Source: Eggerthia catenaformis OT 569 = DSM 20559
GTDB lineage: Bacteria > Bacillota_I > Bacilli_A > Erysipelotrichales > Coprobacillaceae
Assembly: GCF_000340375.1 (NCBI RefSeq)
Contig: NZ_KB446648.1
Location: 105,284 to 169,283, forward strand
DNA length: 64,000 nt
Direction of reading: 5' to 3'
This document shows positions 11,667 through 17,205 of this stretch, piece by piece; the first letter of the stretch is position 1; each line of letters starts with the position of its first letter. The notes under the pieces were generated by a model. It saw only the letters and a program-made list of their open reading frames with translations, ran no database searches and was not told the origin of the DNA. The position numbers and the translations under genes are program-made.

Positions 11667-12284
11667 TTAACAGCAGCTTTTTTTCTTATGGCCGCTATGA
11701 AGCTGATAGATAATATATAAAGCACTTATTGCCAGTAAAAACCATCCGTAAATATGACTACTGTCTCCGGTATTAATCTTAGGAGATGACGGAGGAGTAT
11801 TAGGAATGAATGGAGGCTTATAGGTATGAGTAAAGATAAACTTATCAGATTTTTCATTTGGATCATTCTGATTATGTCCAAAATACTGATAAACAAAACC
11901 GCCCTTGCCATCATTCATCACTCTTATAGTAACAATATATACTCTCTTATCAAGTGTGAAATAAGGCTTATTTTCAGCTGTCTGCGAAATAATATACTGA
12001 TAATCGCCTGGCTTCGTAAAATTTATAGAACCGAATGTCTTCGTTTCTTCTTTAATATTATTAAAAGTTAAAGAATTATCAGAAGGCAATGGTGCATGAT
12101 TAACAGCTTTTAAAGTAACAGTGGTAGTAATCGATGGAGCATTCTCTCCTTTAACACTAACACTAACCGGTATTTTAGGACTTATATTAAGATCACCAAG
12201 TGCATGAACGTTGGAAATAAACCCTGTGCTTAATAGAGTGACTGAGAGAATAAACATACTTAATAAATGCAGTTTTCTTTTCAT
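11667..12284 (-). CDS. FctB-like basal/minor pilin with cell-wall sorting signal
   Basis: A 205-residue secreted protein with a signal peptide (residues 1 to about 28, cleaved near VHA). One pilin domain of FctA/Spy0128 type follows, with FTKPGDYQYIISQ and FTHTYK, the latter giving the usual isopeptide Asn region. A proline-rich stretch follows (about 157-168). The sorting signal consists of PKINTG (168-173), a membrane helix (178-194) and a basic tail ending KKKSCC. The PKINTG motif is a divergent LPXTG. The start has AGGAGGG at good spacing. As last gene of an FCT-3-like operon, small and with a proline-rich tail, it matches the wall-anchoring basal pilin FctB in position and size. The two terminal cysteines are odd. 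Confidence 0.8.
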   Translation of the reverse strand: MKRKLHLLSMFILSVTLLSTGFISNVHALGDLNISPKIPVSVSVKGENAPSITTTVTLKAVNHAPLPSDNSLTFNNIKEETKTFGSINFTKPGDYQYIISQTAENKPYFTLDKRVYIVTIRVMNDGKGGFVYQYFGHNQNDPNEKSDKFIFTHTYKPPFIPNTPPSSPKINTGDSSHIYGWFLLAISALYIIYQLHSGHKKKSCC

Positions 12285-12293
12285 GTTTCCCTC

Positions 12294-13019
12294 CTATCTT
12301 ATCATTTTACCAAATAACAGTATTCTTCCATTTGTTACTGCATCCTGACAGGTAGATAGAGCAATAACTTTATCATTATTATTAATATTAATATTCTGAT
12401 ATTGAATACTGTGCTTTTTAATATAATTTAATCTCTGATTTATAGATCCTTTAGTTGTATTATAAATAAGTACATTGGCAGCATCACATTGTATACAGGC
12501 GAAGAACTGAATATTATACTTTGTCTTATTCTTTAGAAATAAAGTACCGGTCTTGTGACTGTTAAAGTAAGACTTATCTGTAAATTCAGTAATATCACCA
12601 AACATAGCACCATTTTCCATATGATGGCCAAAAACAACATTATAAGGATCAGAAAAATCAGGTTTATTTAAAGAGTTAAGAAATATTGCTCCGGATAATT
12701 GAAAGTTACCATAAACATTCTTATTAATGTATTCCAGATTATTTTTACATTTCACAATCGGATAATCAATATGAGTCTTATCAACTGTTAGCCATGCAAT
12801 AACATCAGAATTGATATTAATAAGTCCTTCTAAAGTCTCTTTATGATCATCTGTAGGTTTATATTGTAATAATCTTTCAGAAGCAAAGGCACTTTTATTA
12901 ATACTGTAGTTATCATATAAAGAATATGTTCCATAAAGCAGCATACACAATGCCAGCAATAAAGAAATATGTCTTATAAAAGCATCGCCTCTGCGTGCCC
13001 ATTTAGCAATACTATCCAT
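12294..13019 (-). CDS. Class B pilus-polymerising sortase (SrtC of FCT type)
   Basis: A 241-residue membrane-anchored transpeptidase with one amino-terminal helix (about 17-36). Catalytic residues are His132 in GHHM, Cys224 in LSTC and Arg232 in GRILLF, the spacing of class B sortases. It lacks the carboxyl membrane helix of class C pilin sortases. In the streptococcal FCT-3 region the pilin polymerase is likewise a class B enzyme sitting between fctA and fctB, as here. It should cleave the IPTG motif of the backbone pilin and join subunits through a lysine. It lies eight bases after the fctA-like gene and has a weak ribosome site. Confidence 0.9.
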   Translation of the reverse strand: MDSIAKWARRGDAFIRHISLLLALCMLLYGTYSLYDNYSINKSAFASERLLQYKPTDDHKETLEGLININSDVIAWLTVDKTHIDYPIVKCKNNLEYINKNVYGNFQLSGAIFLNSLNKPDFSDPYNVVFGHHMENGAMFGDITEFTDKSYFNSHKTGTLFLKNKTKYNIQFFACIQCDAANVLIYNTTKGSINQRLNYIKKHSIQYQNININNNDKVIALSTCQDAVTNGRILLFGKMIR

Positions 13020-13027
13020 GTTGAATT

Positions 13028-14011
13028 TTATAATTCAGAGCGATCTCTTCTCTTATTAAATACTGCAAAGATTACTCCGGCAGCAGCCGCTAATAATATA
13101 TATGGAAGATAAGTCATAATAATACCTGTAGGAATATCTGAATTCTTCTCATTAATAACTGTGATTTCTTTGTTTTGATTAACTACAGTACCGGTATTCA
13201 CTCTATCTGTTGTAGTATAGCCATCACTCGAATAATCATCTTCAGTGATAGTATATTTATCAGATTTAGATAAACCGGTAATTGTGAATGATTCATTATC
13301 CGCTAATTCGAATGTAGTTGAAGATTTTGATTGTACCTCGCCCTTCTTTTCATTGCCTTGATAGATTGCATACATTTCACCTTCTGCACCATCTATTCTG
13401 ATAGTAAACTTAAACTTTTTGGAATAATCGGCAATATTACCTTTAACAGATTTCTTAACAGTCAATTCATTAACACCATCAATTCCTCTTTTATAAGTAT
13501 TTGTGAAAATACCTTCATCCTTAGTATTGTTATCATTAACAAAAGCATAGCTATAAGCATGTTTACTAGTATCAACAAATACATCAAAATGTTTAGAAGA
13601 AGTATCATATTTTATGCCTTCATAGCCGGAATTAACTTCTGTAATTTTATATCTGTATCTGCCCGGTTTTGTAAATACACTTTCATTAATCTTTAATGTT
13701 GCAGTATCAGTAAGATTTAAAGTAGTTTTACCAATATCATCAGCTTTAGGAACTGACTTGATTTCATTATCAGTAAATGTTACACCGCCAGCCGGACCGG
13801 CATAAATCTTACCGTCATTTGAAGCTATTCCGGGCTCCACCTGGAACGTAAAAGTAGTATTAGGAGCAAAATCTCTAGCTTCTTTTTCGATTACTTTTTT
13901 TATTGTAACATTCTTTGGAACATCTTGTGCTGCACTTACATTCATTATAGGAGCTGCCATAGAGAATATCATACCGGCAGCAATCATTGATTTAAAAACT
14001 TTATTCTTCAT
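13028..14011 (-). CDS. FctA-like backbone pilin with two isopeptide domains
   Basis: A 327-residue pilin precursor. The signal peptide is residues 1 to about 28 (NVSAAQD). Domain 1 starts with VTIKKVIEKEAR and ends with FTNTYKRG; domain 2 starts LTVKKSVKG and ends VINEK. Each shows Lys, an acidic ITE and Asn in the order used for intramolecular isopeptide bonds in Spy0128-type pilins. The sorting signal is IPTG, a membrane helix and a basic tail, close to the E/QVPTG of streptococcal FctA. The ATG at 14011 has GGGG eight bases upstream; a longer in-frame reading into the preceding gene is a shadow. It should form the pilus shaft. Confidence 0.88.
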   Translation of the reverse strand: MKNKVFKSMIAAGMIFSMAAPIMNVSAAQDVPKNVTIKKVIEKEARDFAPNTTFTFQVEPGIASNDGKIYAGPAGGVTFTDNEIKSVPKADDIGKTTLNLTDTATLKINESVFTKPGRYRYKITEVNSGYEGIKYDTSSKHFDVFVDTSKHAYSYAFVNDNNTKDEGIFTNTYKRGIDGVNELTVKKSVKGNIADYSKKFKFTIRIDGAEGEMYAIYQGNEKKGEVQSKSSTTFELADNESFTITGLSKSDKYTITEDDYSSDGYTTTDRVNTGTVVNQNKEITVINEKNSDIPTGIIMTYLPYILLAAAAGVIFAVFNKRRDRSEL

Positions 14012-14030
14012 AATTTTATCCCCATTCTTT

Positions 14031-14588
14031 CTAAATATTTGTTCTTCTAACAACTGTAATAACCTTTCCTTTAATTTCAGCTTTATTAACCGGTCCAAAA
14101 TATCTGCTATCTCTTGAACCTTCACGATAGTCACATAGTATAAAATATTGATCTTTTTTTAATGTCAAAGGATATCGAACATCGCTTTTATAGATACCGG
14201 TTTTATAGAAGATATTATTTTCAGTTACAATACTGTCATTAACAATAAGACGCTGATCTTTGCTAAAGCTCAATTTATCACCGCTCTTAGCAACAATTCT
14301 GCCGACATATTGAGTATTATTTTTAGTAAATACAACAACGTTTGAACTGCTATATTTCTTATCAAGGCGATAATAGAATAATAAATCTCCAACACCTATT
14401 TTAGGAAACATATCATTGTTTTTCATTGTTTCAATTCCAAAAATATATCCAAAGAGCGTGCTTAGAATTATTATCAAGAGAATAAGCTTAATGAGAAAAG
14501 ACTTTATATCGCCGATATTTCTTAACCTTATTCTTCTTTGTCTGATAATACCTAAAGGAGTATTATCTATTTCTTTTACTTTTGTCAT
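14031..14588 (-). CDS. SipA-like, catalytically dead signal peptidase of pilus assembly
   Basis: A 185-residue membrane protein of the type I signal peptidase fold with one amino helix (about 30-50) and the S26 boxes. The catalytic Ser of the SMxP box is replaced by Asp59 (NDMFP), and the general-base Lys of the KRV box by Gly96 (VGRIV). Box E is present as GSRDSRYFGPV. The same Asp/Gly replacement is known for Streptococcus pyogenes SipA, which is required for pilus assembly without being a peptidase. The gene lies directly before the backbone pilin, as sipA does in FCT-3. It probably acts as an assembly chaperone with the sortase. Confidence 0.88.
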   Translation of the reverse strand: MTKVKEIDNTPLGIIRQRRIRLRNIGDIKSFLIKLILLIIILSTLFGYIFGIETMKNNDMFPKIGVGDLLFYYRLDKKYSSSNVVVFTKNNTQYVGRIVAKSGDKLSFSKDQRLIVNDSIVTENNIFYKTGIYKSDVRYPLTLKKDQYFILCDYREGSRDSRYFGPVNKAEIKGKVITVVRRTNI

Positions 14589-14589
14589 C

Positions 14590-14802
14590 TTATTTCTTTA
14601 ATAATCTTTCGATTGTTGCGTCTTTTTCTTCGAGCAATGCGTTACTCTTGTCAAGGAGGCTTTGATAAGCTTTCTCATATTCTTTTTCTAATAAATCAAG
14701 CTTATGCCAGACATCTTCTTCATCTATTCCATTAATAAGTTTCTTTTTAAACTTGAGATCTTTTAAATAATTAGAAATATTTTCTAAATCACCTTTAATC
14801 AT
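14590..14802 (-). CDS. Small coiled-coil protein of the pilus operon
   Basis: This 70-residue cytoplasmic protein is unrecognised. It has no signal peptide or membrane helix. From about residue 25 it is rich in Glu, Lys and Leu with a heptad-like pattern (VWHKLDLLEKEYEKAY), predicting a coiled coil. It overlaps the adhesin stop by eight bases and ends one base before the sipA-like gene, so translation is coupled to both. The short gap spacing and intact frame argue for a real gene. A cytoplasmic scaffold or adaptor linking pilus secretion to another process is possible, but nothing in the sequence proves it. Confidence 0.8.
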   Translation of the reverse strand: MIKGDLENISNYLKDLKFKKKLINGIDEEDVWHKLDLLEKEYEKAYQSLLDKSNALLEEKDATIERLLKK

Positions 14803-17098
14803 TTATCTTTTTCCTTCTCATGGACATAAGAACAATCATTAATACACCTGTACCTAATAAAATAATATAGCTACGACTATCTGATTTTACACCTGTAGGT
14901 GTAAGAATTTCTTTATTGTTGATGATTTCTATAGAATCATCGCCTGTTTTATCCTTGTCAGTTATAGATAATACACCATCTTTATCACTTCCATTATAAG
15001 AAATAATATAGCCATCATCTTCAACTGACTGATCTTCTTTTACTATATACTTTGTTCCAATAGGGAGTTTCTCAATATAAATGTTTTGACCATCCCTAAG
15101 ACTTATTGATGACTGACCTTGAGCATTAAATGTAAGCGTGCCTGACTTAGATCCGCTATATTGATAAGATCCGGTAATCGGTTTATTGTTTTTATCTTTT
15201 AAAGTAATATTAATAGTGAAATCTTTAGAGGCATCTCCCATATTGCCGGTAACGGTTTTAGAAATTCTTAATCCGGGCTTTTCTCTGTTTGTAACTAAGA
15301 CCGGACTATCAGGATCTCCTTGTCTGATTTTAAAGGTATTTTGATCAGAAGCTTTGTGAATCTCTATTTCATTATCATAAACTTTGATAGTAGATTCATA
15401 TAATTTGAAATCATAATTATCTTCAGTAACACTATAAGTATCCTCTAAACGAAGATTAGTCATTACCTTTCTTTCACCTGCTTTAAGTTTATAAGTTATA
15501 TCATATCCTCTATCACTAGTAACATGAATATTGTAAACCTTATTATTGTCCTGAGCAGCCGTTTTCTCTTTTCCGTTTTTATCAATAAGTTTCTTCTCTA
15601 CTATCAGAAGTATCGGATCAACAGCCGGAATATCAAAGTCACCCTTATCCGATGAAAGTATTTTATCTGTACCGTTAACGTCTTTATAACTGACATCTGT
15701 CTTGCCGTTAGTTTTATAGGTTTTATTCTGGACTATTGGCTGATCTTTATTAATAAGAGCCAGAATATCATCATTAATATTAATTCTATAAGTCATCTTG
15801 GCAAAGCGGTATGTAATACCGTCAATTTCAGCTGTTTTCTCTAAAGTTCCGGTATCCCAGCTGATTTTCTTATTTGCATAAGACTGAGTACCTTGAGATA
15901 TATGAATATTGGAAACTTCACCAATAGGAATCTCAAAACCTGTACCCATAGGATCTGAAACTTTTACATTTTTCATAGCACTTAGTATCTTTCCGGCAAT
16001 ACCTGTAAAAACGGTTTCAAGCTGTTCCGGTGTCTTATTACGCTCATAAGTAGAACTTGAACTGGCAACCTTTCCTAAGACATAATCTCCATTGCTGCCA
16101 TTAGATACCTGCAAGCCGATAGAATAAACCTGCATCTTCTTATCTTTTTTAGCAAATCCTGATTCATTGATTGTTGAATTGGCATGACTTTCTAAGACAA
16201 GATAGCCTTTTTCCGAATGATTGAAGCCGCTATTAGGATCATAATATCTTTTATGAACCGGATGACTGCCGCTAGATTCAGTAGAATAAGAACCTGCACC
16301 GAAACCTGTTCTTGTACCATAACGATAACTGTCGGGAGTTAAATCATGGGCATTTCCTTCATTCTGATGTGAGATATAAGCGTAGCCGGAATGATCACCT
16401 ATTCGTATACTATTGTTACTATTTTGTGCATATGCGTACTCTACATTAACATTCTTAAGATCATAATTATTAATATTAGCATTTATAGATGTACTAAAAG
16501 TAGGCTCACCATCTGATAGTAAAACAATATATTTATGATCAGCGTGAGAATTATTTAGAATCTTTCTAGCTTCATATAAGCCTCCCTGAGTATACGTTCC
16601 TCCATTTGCTGACAAGCTGCTAATCTTCTGCTTTAATACTGAACCATTGGATGTTAAAGCCTGATCAACAGAAACATTACTTTCAAAAGAAACAAGAGAT
16701 ACTCTAGTATTACCGGAATTACCATCAGGCAATACTATATCAACAAACTTATTGGCAGCAGCTATAGCTTTAGCCATTCTTGAGTTCTCTTTCATACTGC
16801 CGGACTTATCAATCACGAGAACAACATCAGATGTTTCTTTGACATCTCTGGCAGTCATATACAGTGAGATATCCCAAGTATTTACCATACCGCTAACCGG
16901 ATTTGCATCTTTAAAGACAGCTGTTTTTCCCGGCATAAGATTCTTATTCTTAATTTTCTGTTTTTCAGCTTCCGTCAGCGTGCCGGCACTAGGTACAGCA
17001 GGATCTTTAGCTTTTACCTGCTTACCAATAAGACTAAAACATAAAGCAAAGCTAAATAATAGTGACAATGTTTTTCTTATCTTACTTTTGCTTTTCAT
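14795..17098 (-). CDS. von Willebrand factor A tip adhesin of the pilus
   Basis: A 767-residue surface protein. A signal peptide (to about residue 31) leads to a vWA domain with a complete MIDAS: DKSGSM gives Asp97, Ser99 and Ser101, with the Thr in GTYTQGG and Asp in LLSDGEP. Downstream are Cna-B/isopeptide-like domains (LRLEDTYSVTEDNY; KTVTGNMGDASKDF). The sorting signal LTPTG (732-736) precedes a membrane helix and a basic tail. The first of two adjacent ATGs is only two bases from GGAGG, so I use the second, at 17098. As first gene of the operon it parallels Cpa or RrgA-type tip adhesins. The ligand is unknown. Confidence 0.88.
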   Translation of the reverse strand: MKSKSKIRKTLSLLFSFALCFSLIGKQVKAKDPAVPSAGTLTEAEKQKIKNKNLMPGKTAVFKDANPVSGMVNTWDISLYMTARDVKETSDVVLVIDKSGSMKENSRMAKAIAAANKFVDIVLPDGNSGNTRVSLVSFESNVSVDQALTSNGSVLKQKISSLSANGGTYTQGGLYEARKILNNSHADHKYIVLLSDGEPTFSTSINANINNYDLKNVNVEYAYAQNSNNSIRIGDHSGYAYISHQNEGNAHDLTPDSYRYGTRTGFGAGSYSTESSGSHPVHKRYYDPNSGFNHSEKGYLVLESHANSTINESGFAKKDKKMQVYSIGLQVSNGSNGDYVLGKVASSSSTYERNKTPEQLETVFTGIAGKILSAMKNVKVSDPMGTGFEIPIGEVSNIHISQGTQSYANKKISWDTGTLEKTAEIDGITYRFAKMTYRININDDILALINKDQPIVQNKTYKTNGKTDVSYKDVNGTDKILSSDKGDFDIPAVDPILLIVEKKLIDKNGKEKTAAQDNNKVYNIHVTSDRGYDITYKLKAGERKVMTNLRLEDTYSVTEDNYDFKLYESTIKVYDNEIEIHKASDQNTFKIRQGDPDSPVLVTNREKPGLRISKTVTGNMGDASKDFTINITLKDKNNKPITGSYQYSGSKSGTLTFNAQGQSSISLRDGQNIYIEKLPIGTKYIVKEDQSVEDDGYIISYNGSDKDGVLSITDKDKTGDDSIEIINNKEILTPTGVKSDSRSYIILLGTGVLMIVLMSMRRKKIND

Positions 17099-17102
17099 CA
17101 TG

Positions 17103-17205
17103 TCCTCCTTTCTGAATTTTCTCAAGCAATTAATAATACTTCTGTTAAGTTTTTTTTTTGTTAATTCCTCCTTTCTAAATCGCTTGAAACGATTAATCTT
17201 ACTTA
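17103..17205 (-). repeat. Imperfect direct duplication in the pilus leader
   Basis: Two copies about 40 bases long, offset by 63 bases, begin CCTCCTTTCT on the plus strand and continue with similar AAT, CAA/GAAA, ATTAAT and ACTT blocks. Each carries a Shine-Dalgarno AGGAGG on the minus strand. Only the copy next to the adhesin is followed by a start codon. A run of ten T (17150-17159) separates them. Confidence 0.6.

What the first reader, a model, noticed from the sequence alone, without database searches (positions are those of the whole stretch)
14031..14588. Signal peptidase homologue with the catalytic Ser and Lys replaced by Asp and Gly
Asp59 stands at the Ser position and Gly96 at the Lys position, exactly the replacements described for S. 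pyogenes SipA. Conservation of the same dead residues in a distant organism implies that the substituted pair is functional in pilus assembly rather than random decay.
Basis: partly seen in the sequence, partly recalled or inferred. Interest (0 to 1): 0.55.

Follow-up and report, generated by a model that had tools for sequence, protein, structure and literature searches.

The report
Catalytically dead SipA-like pilus assembly protein
This bacterial gene encodes a signal-peptidase look-alike that has lost its cutting residues and sits in a pilus gene cluster laid out like that of Streptococcus pyogenes, where the known counterpart (SipA) is needed to build pili; it is a new example of a known protein, and the two odd residues themselves are probably not what makes it work.

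Summary
On the minus strand (14588-14031) lies a 185-residue signal peptidase I homologue with Asp59 at the Ser and Gly96 at the Lys position, aligning with Asp48/Gly85 of S. pyogenes SipA. Its operon matches cpa-sipA-fctA-srtC-fctB apart from one inserted ORF: a SipA-type assembly factor, a new member of a known kind.

That the Asp/Gly pair itself is functional is not supported. Changing this Asp to Ala or Ser in M1 SipA did not affect polymerisation (PMC4049620). In the 50-row SipA-like clade of a tree built without the two columns, the Ser position changes 20 times, near the median of columns. Conserved instead are the absence of the dyad (Ser+Lys 0 of 50, against 15 of 20 in the signal peptidase clade) and pairing with pilus-type class B sortases (41 of 43 places, partly circular). 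SipA-specific Arg181 (47 of 49) is a better functional candidate. A small ORF beside sipA in six genomes, weakly and sub-threshold DivIVA-like, is the most novel lead.

The parts
14031..14588 (-). sipA-like gene, 185 aa: N-terminal helix (probable membrane anchor) and S26 signal-peptidase-like domain without the Ser-Lys dyad
   Evidence: Peptidase_S26 E 4e-18; TIGR02227 95.6 bits, cut-off 47
14412..14414 (-). codon of Asp59, at the position of the catalytic Ser
14301..14303 (-). codon of Gly96, at the position of the catalytic Lys
14133..14135 (-). codon of Cys152, at the position of Gly272 of E. coli signal peptidase; Gly in 18 of 20 rows of the signal peptidase clade and in 9 of 50 of the SipA-like clade
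   Evidence: role of Gly272 from PMC4049620; equivalence by the box LGD/LCD
14046..14048 (-). codon of Arg181, the strongest SipA-clade signature (47 of 49 rows against 2 of 15)
14795..17101 (-). tip pilin: VWA domain, GBS104-like Ig domain, DUF7601, sorting motif LTPTG; likely start ATG at 17101 behind AGGAGG
14590..14802 (-). 70-aa coiled-coil-like ORF between tip pilin and sipA, weakly and sub-threshold like the DivIVA N-terminal domain; relatives next to sipA in five other genomes
13028..14011 (-). FctA-like major pilin, 327 aa: Spy0128-like isopeptide domain, DUF7601, sorting motif DIPTG, no YPK motif
12294..13019 (-). class B sortase (TIGR03064, 188.5 bits, cut-off 153.75), pilus type
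11667..12284 (-). small FctA-domain pilin in the position of the basal pilin FctB, C-terminal NTGD and hydrophobic tail

Best explanation
The gene encodes a SipA-type assembly factor: a membrane-anchored protein with the signal peptidase I fold but no proteolytic centre, encoded in one tight gene cluster with the pilins and the class B sortase that links them. It most likely acts as a non-catalytic scaffold or peptide-binding subunit that presents pilin sorting signals or acceptor lysines to the class B sortase, which lacks the lid of class C pilus sortases. Signal peptides are cut by a separate Ser-Lys signal peptidase of the same genome. Asp59 and Gly96 fill the vacated catalytic positions and are tolerated rather than required. 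Shown here: homology, missing dyad, gene cluster, pairing with pilus-type class B sortases, variability of the pair. Inferred from S. pyogenes: requirement for polymerisation and absence of protease activity. Inferred without direct evidence anywhere: the scaffold step.
For: Best solved relative is SipA by sequence and fold. Gene order equals cpa-sipA-fctA-srtC-fctB (quoted in PMC4049620) with one extra ORF; gaps between genes of -8 to 19 bases. Class B sortase over its curated cut-off; pilin without YPKN motif, as described for Spy0128. Ser+Lys in 0 of 41 pilus-linked rows and 14 of 22 rows without sortase, pilin or wall-protein neighbours; 0 of 50 in the SipA-like clade (one row unreadable at the Ser) against 15 of 20 in the signal peptidase clade, tree built without those columns. 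Other catalysis residues are relaxed too: Ser at the Ser278 position in 9 of 50 against 18 of 20, Gly at the Gly272 position in 9 of 50 against 18 of 20. 41 of 43 pilus-type class B sortase places lie in loci with a SipA-like ORF. The genome holds a separate S26 protein with Ser and Lys. In S. pyogenes sipA deletion abolishes polymerisation and D61A/D61S do not.
Against: Nothing here tests function in this organism. Pull-downs of Young et al. found no binding of SipA to pilin, sortase or peptides. My relatives were gathered with this protein as query (E 1e-15 or 1e-10), and the sortase profile came from 14 SipA-linked sortases, so 0 of 41 and 41 of 43 are partly circular; two of the 43 showed no SipA, on cut contigs. 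S. suis and S. agalactiae have a SipA homologue with an apparently intact dyad, so loss of the dyad is not a rule for all. Gly96 is more conserved than Asp59 (17th percentile). The window protein itself keeps Ser at the Ser278 position (Ser158).
Confidence: 0.8

Rival explanations
1. The Asp/Gly pair is itself a selected functional site (for example Asp59 as acid, metal or hydrogen-bond ligand at the head of the peptide groove).
For: All five rows of the window's own subclade (98/98 support) have Asp and Gly at 41-47% identity to the window protein, as does S. pyogenes SipA. Gly is the commonest residue at position 96 (26 of 50).
Against: D61A and D61S are neutral in M1 SipA. Position 59 holds Ser 14, Asn 8, Asp 7, Thr 4, Ala 4, Arg 4, Tyr 3 and others in 49 rows, with 20 changes. 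The nearby Lys83 of SipA, the other half of a possible Asp-Lys pair, is Tyr94 here.
Confidence: 0.08
2. It is an active signal peptidase with an altered mechanism, dedicated to pilin precursors.
For: It passes the curated cut-off of the signal peptidase I equivalog TIGR02227 (95.6 against 47 bits).
Against: No Ser, no Lys, no Gly at the Gly272 position. S. pyogenes SipA has no detectable peptidase activity. A Ser-Lys peptidase is encoded elsewhere in the genome.
Confidence: 0.03
3. A decaying remnant of a signal peptidase without function.
For: Catalysis residues are relaxed in the clade.
Against: Intact ORF within a tightly packed cluster, invariant structural residues, clade-specific conserved Arg181, presence in 41 of 43 pilus-type class B sortase places of the order.
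Confidence: 0.04

Closest known systems
SipA/LepA of S. pyogenes FCT-2, -3 and -4 pilus operons (PDB 4n31, 4k8w)
   Same: Fold, Asp and Gly at the Ser and Lys positions, gene order, class B sortase partner, two-domain FctA-like pilin without YPKN motif.
   Different: 37-41% identity in the Foldseek alignments; Lys83 equivalent is Tyr94; extra 70-aa ORF upstream; tip protein has a VWA domain (that Cpa has none is recalled); in the tree the two sit in different supported clades, though one clade is not rejected.
SipA-like proteins of Sharpea azabuensis and Faecalicoccus pleomorphus (L044, L045)
   Same: Closest relatives found, 47% and 44% identical, Asp/Gly, pilus loci.
   Different: Gene order: in Sharpea three pilin-like genes and the small ORF precede sipA and the sortase follows it; in Faecalicoccus the order is tip, pilin, sortase, small pilin, sipA, and the small ORF was not found.
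Type I signal peptidase (S. aureus SpsB, E. coli LepB)
   Same: Fold and the conserved Met60, Arg97, Asp153, Asp160, Arg162.
   Different: Catalytic Ser and Lys and the supporting Gly are absent.

Membership tests
SipA-type pilus assembly factor (class B sortase pili) | S26 fold with membrane anchor, without Ser-Lys dyad | tested here: met
   the anchor is inferred from the N-terminal hydrophobic helix
SipA-type pilus assembly factor (class B sortase pili) | Encoded between tip and major pilin genes, in order tip-sipA-fctA-srtC-fctB | tested here: met
   one extra ORF between tip and sipA
SipA-type pilus assembly factor (class B sortase pili) | Partner sortase is class B | tested here: met
   (TIGR03064, 188.5 bits, cut-off 153.75)
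SipA-type pilus assembly factor (class B sortase pili) | Groups with S. pyogenes SipA apart from Ser-Lys signal peptidases | tested here: met
   50-row clade 96/95 holding both, tree built without columns 59 and 96
SipA-type pilus assembly factor (class B sortase pili) | Required for pilus polymerisation | not testable with these tools
   shown for S. pyogenes, and per the review for related proteins of S. agalactiae PI-2b and S. pneumoniae PI-2
Type I signal peptidase (catalytic) | Ser nucleophile and Lys general base | tested here: not met
DivIVA/GpsB family (small ORF 14802-14590) | Match to Pfam DivIVA over its gathering score | tested here: not met
   15 bits, E 0.024 for the window protein (cut-off 28); 2 of 6 members match at E 5 or better, best E 0.0037; profile against own GpsB and DivIVA not significant; best PDB sequence match DivIVA 2wuj at E 0.35

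The most novel reading that the evidence does not exclude
Pili built by class B sortases across this order obligatorily pair the lidless sortase with a dyad-less SipA, and one lineage adds a cytoplasmic DivIVA-like coiled-coil partner that places the SipA-sortase assembly site at the septum or pole; Arg181 and the neighbouring C-terminal arginines, not Asp59/Gly96, form the conserved contact.
Probability: 0.15. Interest if true: 0.55.

Novelty: new member of a known kind. Interest (0 to 1): 0.22.

Why it matters
It extends the SipA-class B sortase pilus system, worked out in streptococci, to another order of Bacillota, and says which residues to test: the vacated catalytic pair looks dispensable, while absence of the dyad and a C-terminal Arg are shared by nearly all relatives examined. 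It also warns that automatic annotation may call such proteins signal peptidase I, since this one passes the TIGR02227 cut-off.

Tried and rejected
A scan of genome contigs with an 8-row alignment was not possible (no conserved stretch); a 3-row alignment gave two loci. One of its two search patterns spans Asp59, so I did not count residues from that scan. tblastn on plasmids gave six records, all under 32% identity and annotated lepB; the five I opened list no sortase gene; one (Finegoldia) has an FctA-domain gene about 4 kb from the match with other genes between; not used.

A first sortase-anchored check with TIGR03064 (capped list): I chose 60 listed places that lay outside the regions already fetched, so SipA-linked ones were excluded by design. 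In these 60 loci (some cut at contig ends) no S26 ORF reached E 1e-4 and one FctA-like ORF was found (counts printed before that script crashed); at E 1e-2 there were 4 weak S26 hits. A positive control of the S26 model found all 70 fetched SipA-query loci. FctA detection was less sensitive in this set, as its profile had fewer members. It shows only that these stand-alone sortases have no signal-peptidase neighbour. I then used a profile of 14 pilus-linked sortases. In that search at most eight candidates per genome were scored in most genomes, so some places may be missed.

The rate comparison defined the active set by Ser+Lys, which is circular for positions 59 and 96; in its pilus-only set position 59 lies at the 45th and position 96 at the 23rd percentile. 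I use the clade-based counts. A first tree (simpler model, all columns) agreed on the split of the two groups (93 for the SipA-like group without L080), but placed the inner branches with weak support. Dropped or set aside: one duplicate row (L056); L080, a long branch with Asp/Gly, left out of the clade counts; L071 has no readable Ser region because of a stop in the frame. S. pyogenes SipA was put in the pilus-linked group by hand.

That the streptococcal and window Asp/Gly are certainly convergent was rejected as undecided: AU p 0.33. The DivIVA idea for the small ORF was not confirmed: hhalign probability 0.2%, Foldseek no match, sub-threshold Pfam; two weak phmmer hits (L055, L094; E 0.02 and 0.08) were not used. 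No paper on SipA in Erysipelotrichales stood in the listings of the searches (open-licence PMC only). Papers: PMC4049620 abstract, passages, section 8 and the first of two parts of section 12; PMC7900414, PMC8088525, PMC3178606 passages; all others search listings only. Zahner and Scott 2008 was not held.

Full report
What is there. The finding lies on the minus strand: ATG at 14588, stop ending at 14031, 185 residues. Residue 59 is Asp and residue 96 is Gly. Pfam gives Peptidase_S26 (E 4e-18) and NCBIfam signal peptidase I TIGR02227 at 95.6 bits, twice its cut-off, so automatic annotation may call it an active peptidase. phmmer against the PDB puts S. pyogenes SipA first (4n31, E 2.7e-27; 4k8w, 1.5e-24), far ahead of S. 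aureus SpsB (7e-6); Asp59 and Gly96 align with Asp and Gly of SipA and share columns with Ser and Lys of SpsB. An AlphaFold2 model from three sequences is of middling confidence (mean pLDDT 71; under 50 at 1-4, 53-58 and 125-132). Its best matches are 4n31 by Foldseek (E 2e-7) and VIA-align (Z 14.4, 120 residues, rmsd 2.6), then 4k8w (12.3) and true signal peptidases (Z 10-11). The model does not test the place of Asp59: its helix runs through residue 60 and the structural alignment starts 59 against 37, not 48.

Surroundings. Six genes run on the minus strand with gaps of -8, 1, 19, 8 and 9 bases: a tip pilin with VWA and GBS104-like Ig domains (17101-14795), a 70-aa ORF (14802-14590), the sipA-like gene, an FctA-like pilin with a Spy0128-like isopeptide domain (14011-13028), a class B sortase over its curated cut-off (13019-12294), and a small FctA-domain pilin (12284-11667). 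[quoted passage not shown] pyogenes (PMC4049620) with one ORF inserted. The main pilin lacks a YPKN motif, as described for Spy0128. The genome has a second S26 protein with Ser and Lys, 30% identical, which can do ordinary signal peptide cleavage (inference). The window's genome belongs to the order of Sharpea and Faecalicoccus: two contigs of genomes of its order have the same lengths as the named records that hold L044 and L045; the species was not determined.

Relatives. Genomes with a match: 8 of 43 of the family (E 1e-10), 45 of 315 of the order (E 1e-15), 11 of 395 of a class sample and 9 of 392 of a phylum sample; the sets overlap. I fetched 70 regions around the places listed there, the own-genome peptidase and the window among them, removed one duplicate, added the two PDB stretches, and aligned 71 rows. 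Rows were called pilus-linked if a sortase and a pilin-like ORF lay within 4.5 kb on the same strand (rules). Of 41 pilus-linked rows (S. pyogenes SipA put in by hand), none has Ser+Lys. The pairs are DG 7, NG 6, SA 4, SG 4, TR 3, two each of AR, GG, NQ, SR, YG, one each of AG, HR, MK, SL, SS, TG, and one without a readable Ser region. Of 22 rows without sortase, pilin or wall-protein neighbours 14 are Ser+Lys; the other 8 are RS 3 and one each of AR, DG, QR, SQ, SR. The remaining rows are 3 with a sortase only, 4 with a wall protein only, and SpsB.

Tree and rates. A tree built without columns 59 and 96 puts 50 rows, the window and S. pyogenes SipA among them, apart from 21 rows that hold the Ser-Lys peptidases (96/95). 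Ser+Lys: 0 of 50 against 15 of 20 (L080, a long branch, left out). Within the 50, position 59 changes 20 times (60th percentile of 151 columns), position 96 changes 8 times (17th), the Ser278 position 21 times (62nd) and the Gly272 position 12 times (27th), whereas Met60, Arg97, Asp153, Arg155, Asp160 and Arg162 never change. So relaxation falls on residues that serve catalysis, most on the Ser and Ser278 positions. The window's subclade (5 rows, 98/98) is all Asp/Gly; S. pyogenes SipA falls in another supported clade (29 rows, 95/89) whose members carry D, T, G, S, A, N, Y or R at position 59. The data do not reject one clade for all six (AU p 0.33), so shared descent or convergence stays open. 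One further Asp/Gly row, L085, lies in the same 29-row clade as SipA but pairs with a Gly/Gly row (97/89).

Pairing with the sortase. A profile of 14 pilus-linked sortases searched in 315 genomes of the order finds 43 places at 204 bits or more, then a drop to 170 bits and below. 41 of the 43 lie in loci that hold a SipA-like ORF, by their coordinates; these are 40 different ORFs, none with Ser+Lys, one unreadable at the Ser. The other two are on a 3.6-kb contig and on a contig that begins inside the pilin gene and showed no S26 ORF, so they decide nothing. The profile was built from SipA-linked sortases, so the figure is partly circular, but the score gap is clear. 60 further class B sortase loci, chosen outside the fetched regions, had no S26 ORF at E 1e-4 and one FctA-like ORF (4 weak S26 hits at E 1e-2).

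What is known. Young et al. 2014 (PMC4049620; abstract, passages, section 8 and part of section 12 seen) show that SipA is essential for polymerisation, has no detectable peptidase activity, and that D61A, D61S and D61A/K98A leave polymerisation intact; they state that these residues are not conserved in homologues of other species and propose recognition of sorting signals with, or a scaffold for, the class B sortase, which lacks the class C lid. They also report no detectable binding to pilin, sortase or peptides. A 2021 review (PMC7900414, passages) calls the exact function unknown. C. perfringens has a pilus operon predicted to encode a class B sortase and a signal peptidase (PMC8088525, passages), so the pairing is not limited to streptococci. 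S. suis and S. agalactiae have a SipA homologue with an apparently intact dyad, so the rule found here should not be stretched to all pili.

Where function may lie. Comparing the 50-row clade with 20 signal peptidase rows, the strongest clade-specific conservation is Arg181 (47 of 49 against 2 of 15), then Arg182 (35 of 48 against 0 of 15) and an Arg at 183 (33 of 48 against 0 of 15; Thr in the window). These C-terminal arginines are better candidates than Asp59/Gly96; their role is unknown.

Small ORF. The 70-aa protein has relatives directly beside sipA in five other genomes; a profile search of 23 genomes found these six and no further copy (6 of 23). Four of the five other neighbours are Asp/Gly SipAs, one Gly/Gly. 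It is predicted as a helix, a turn and a long helix. Likeness to DivIVA is suggestive only.

Verdict. Observation right, family right, specific claim for the pair not borne out. New member of a known kind; interest modest.

Noticed in passing
window 14590-14802 (-): 70-aa coiled-coil-like ORF between tip pilin and sipA, with relatives beside sipA in five other genomes; weak, sub-threshold likeness to the DivIVA N-terminal domain.
   Followed up: partly
L080 7995-8890 / L190 18380-19275: An Asp/Gly sipA-like gene with the same small ORF but no pilin or sortase recognised nearby: an apparent orphan pair on a long branch.
   Followed up: partly
L103, L106, L113, L115: A separate S26 lineage on the signal peptidase side of the tree (100/87) that has also lost the dyad (Asp/Arg or Ala/Arg); in two of the four loci LPXTG-type wall proteins lie nearby, in one a sortase.
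   Followed up: no
L098, L100, L101, L102: A SipA-like subclade with Arg/Ser at the two positions (100/95); a sortase is next to one of four, no pilin was recognised by my rules.
   Followed up: no
window 13028-14134 and 14795-17125 (-): The longest ORFs start upstream of the likely starts: the major pilin probably begins at ATG 14011 (signal peptide), the tip pilin at ATG 17101 behind AGGAGG.
   Followed up: partly
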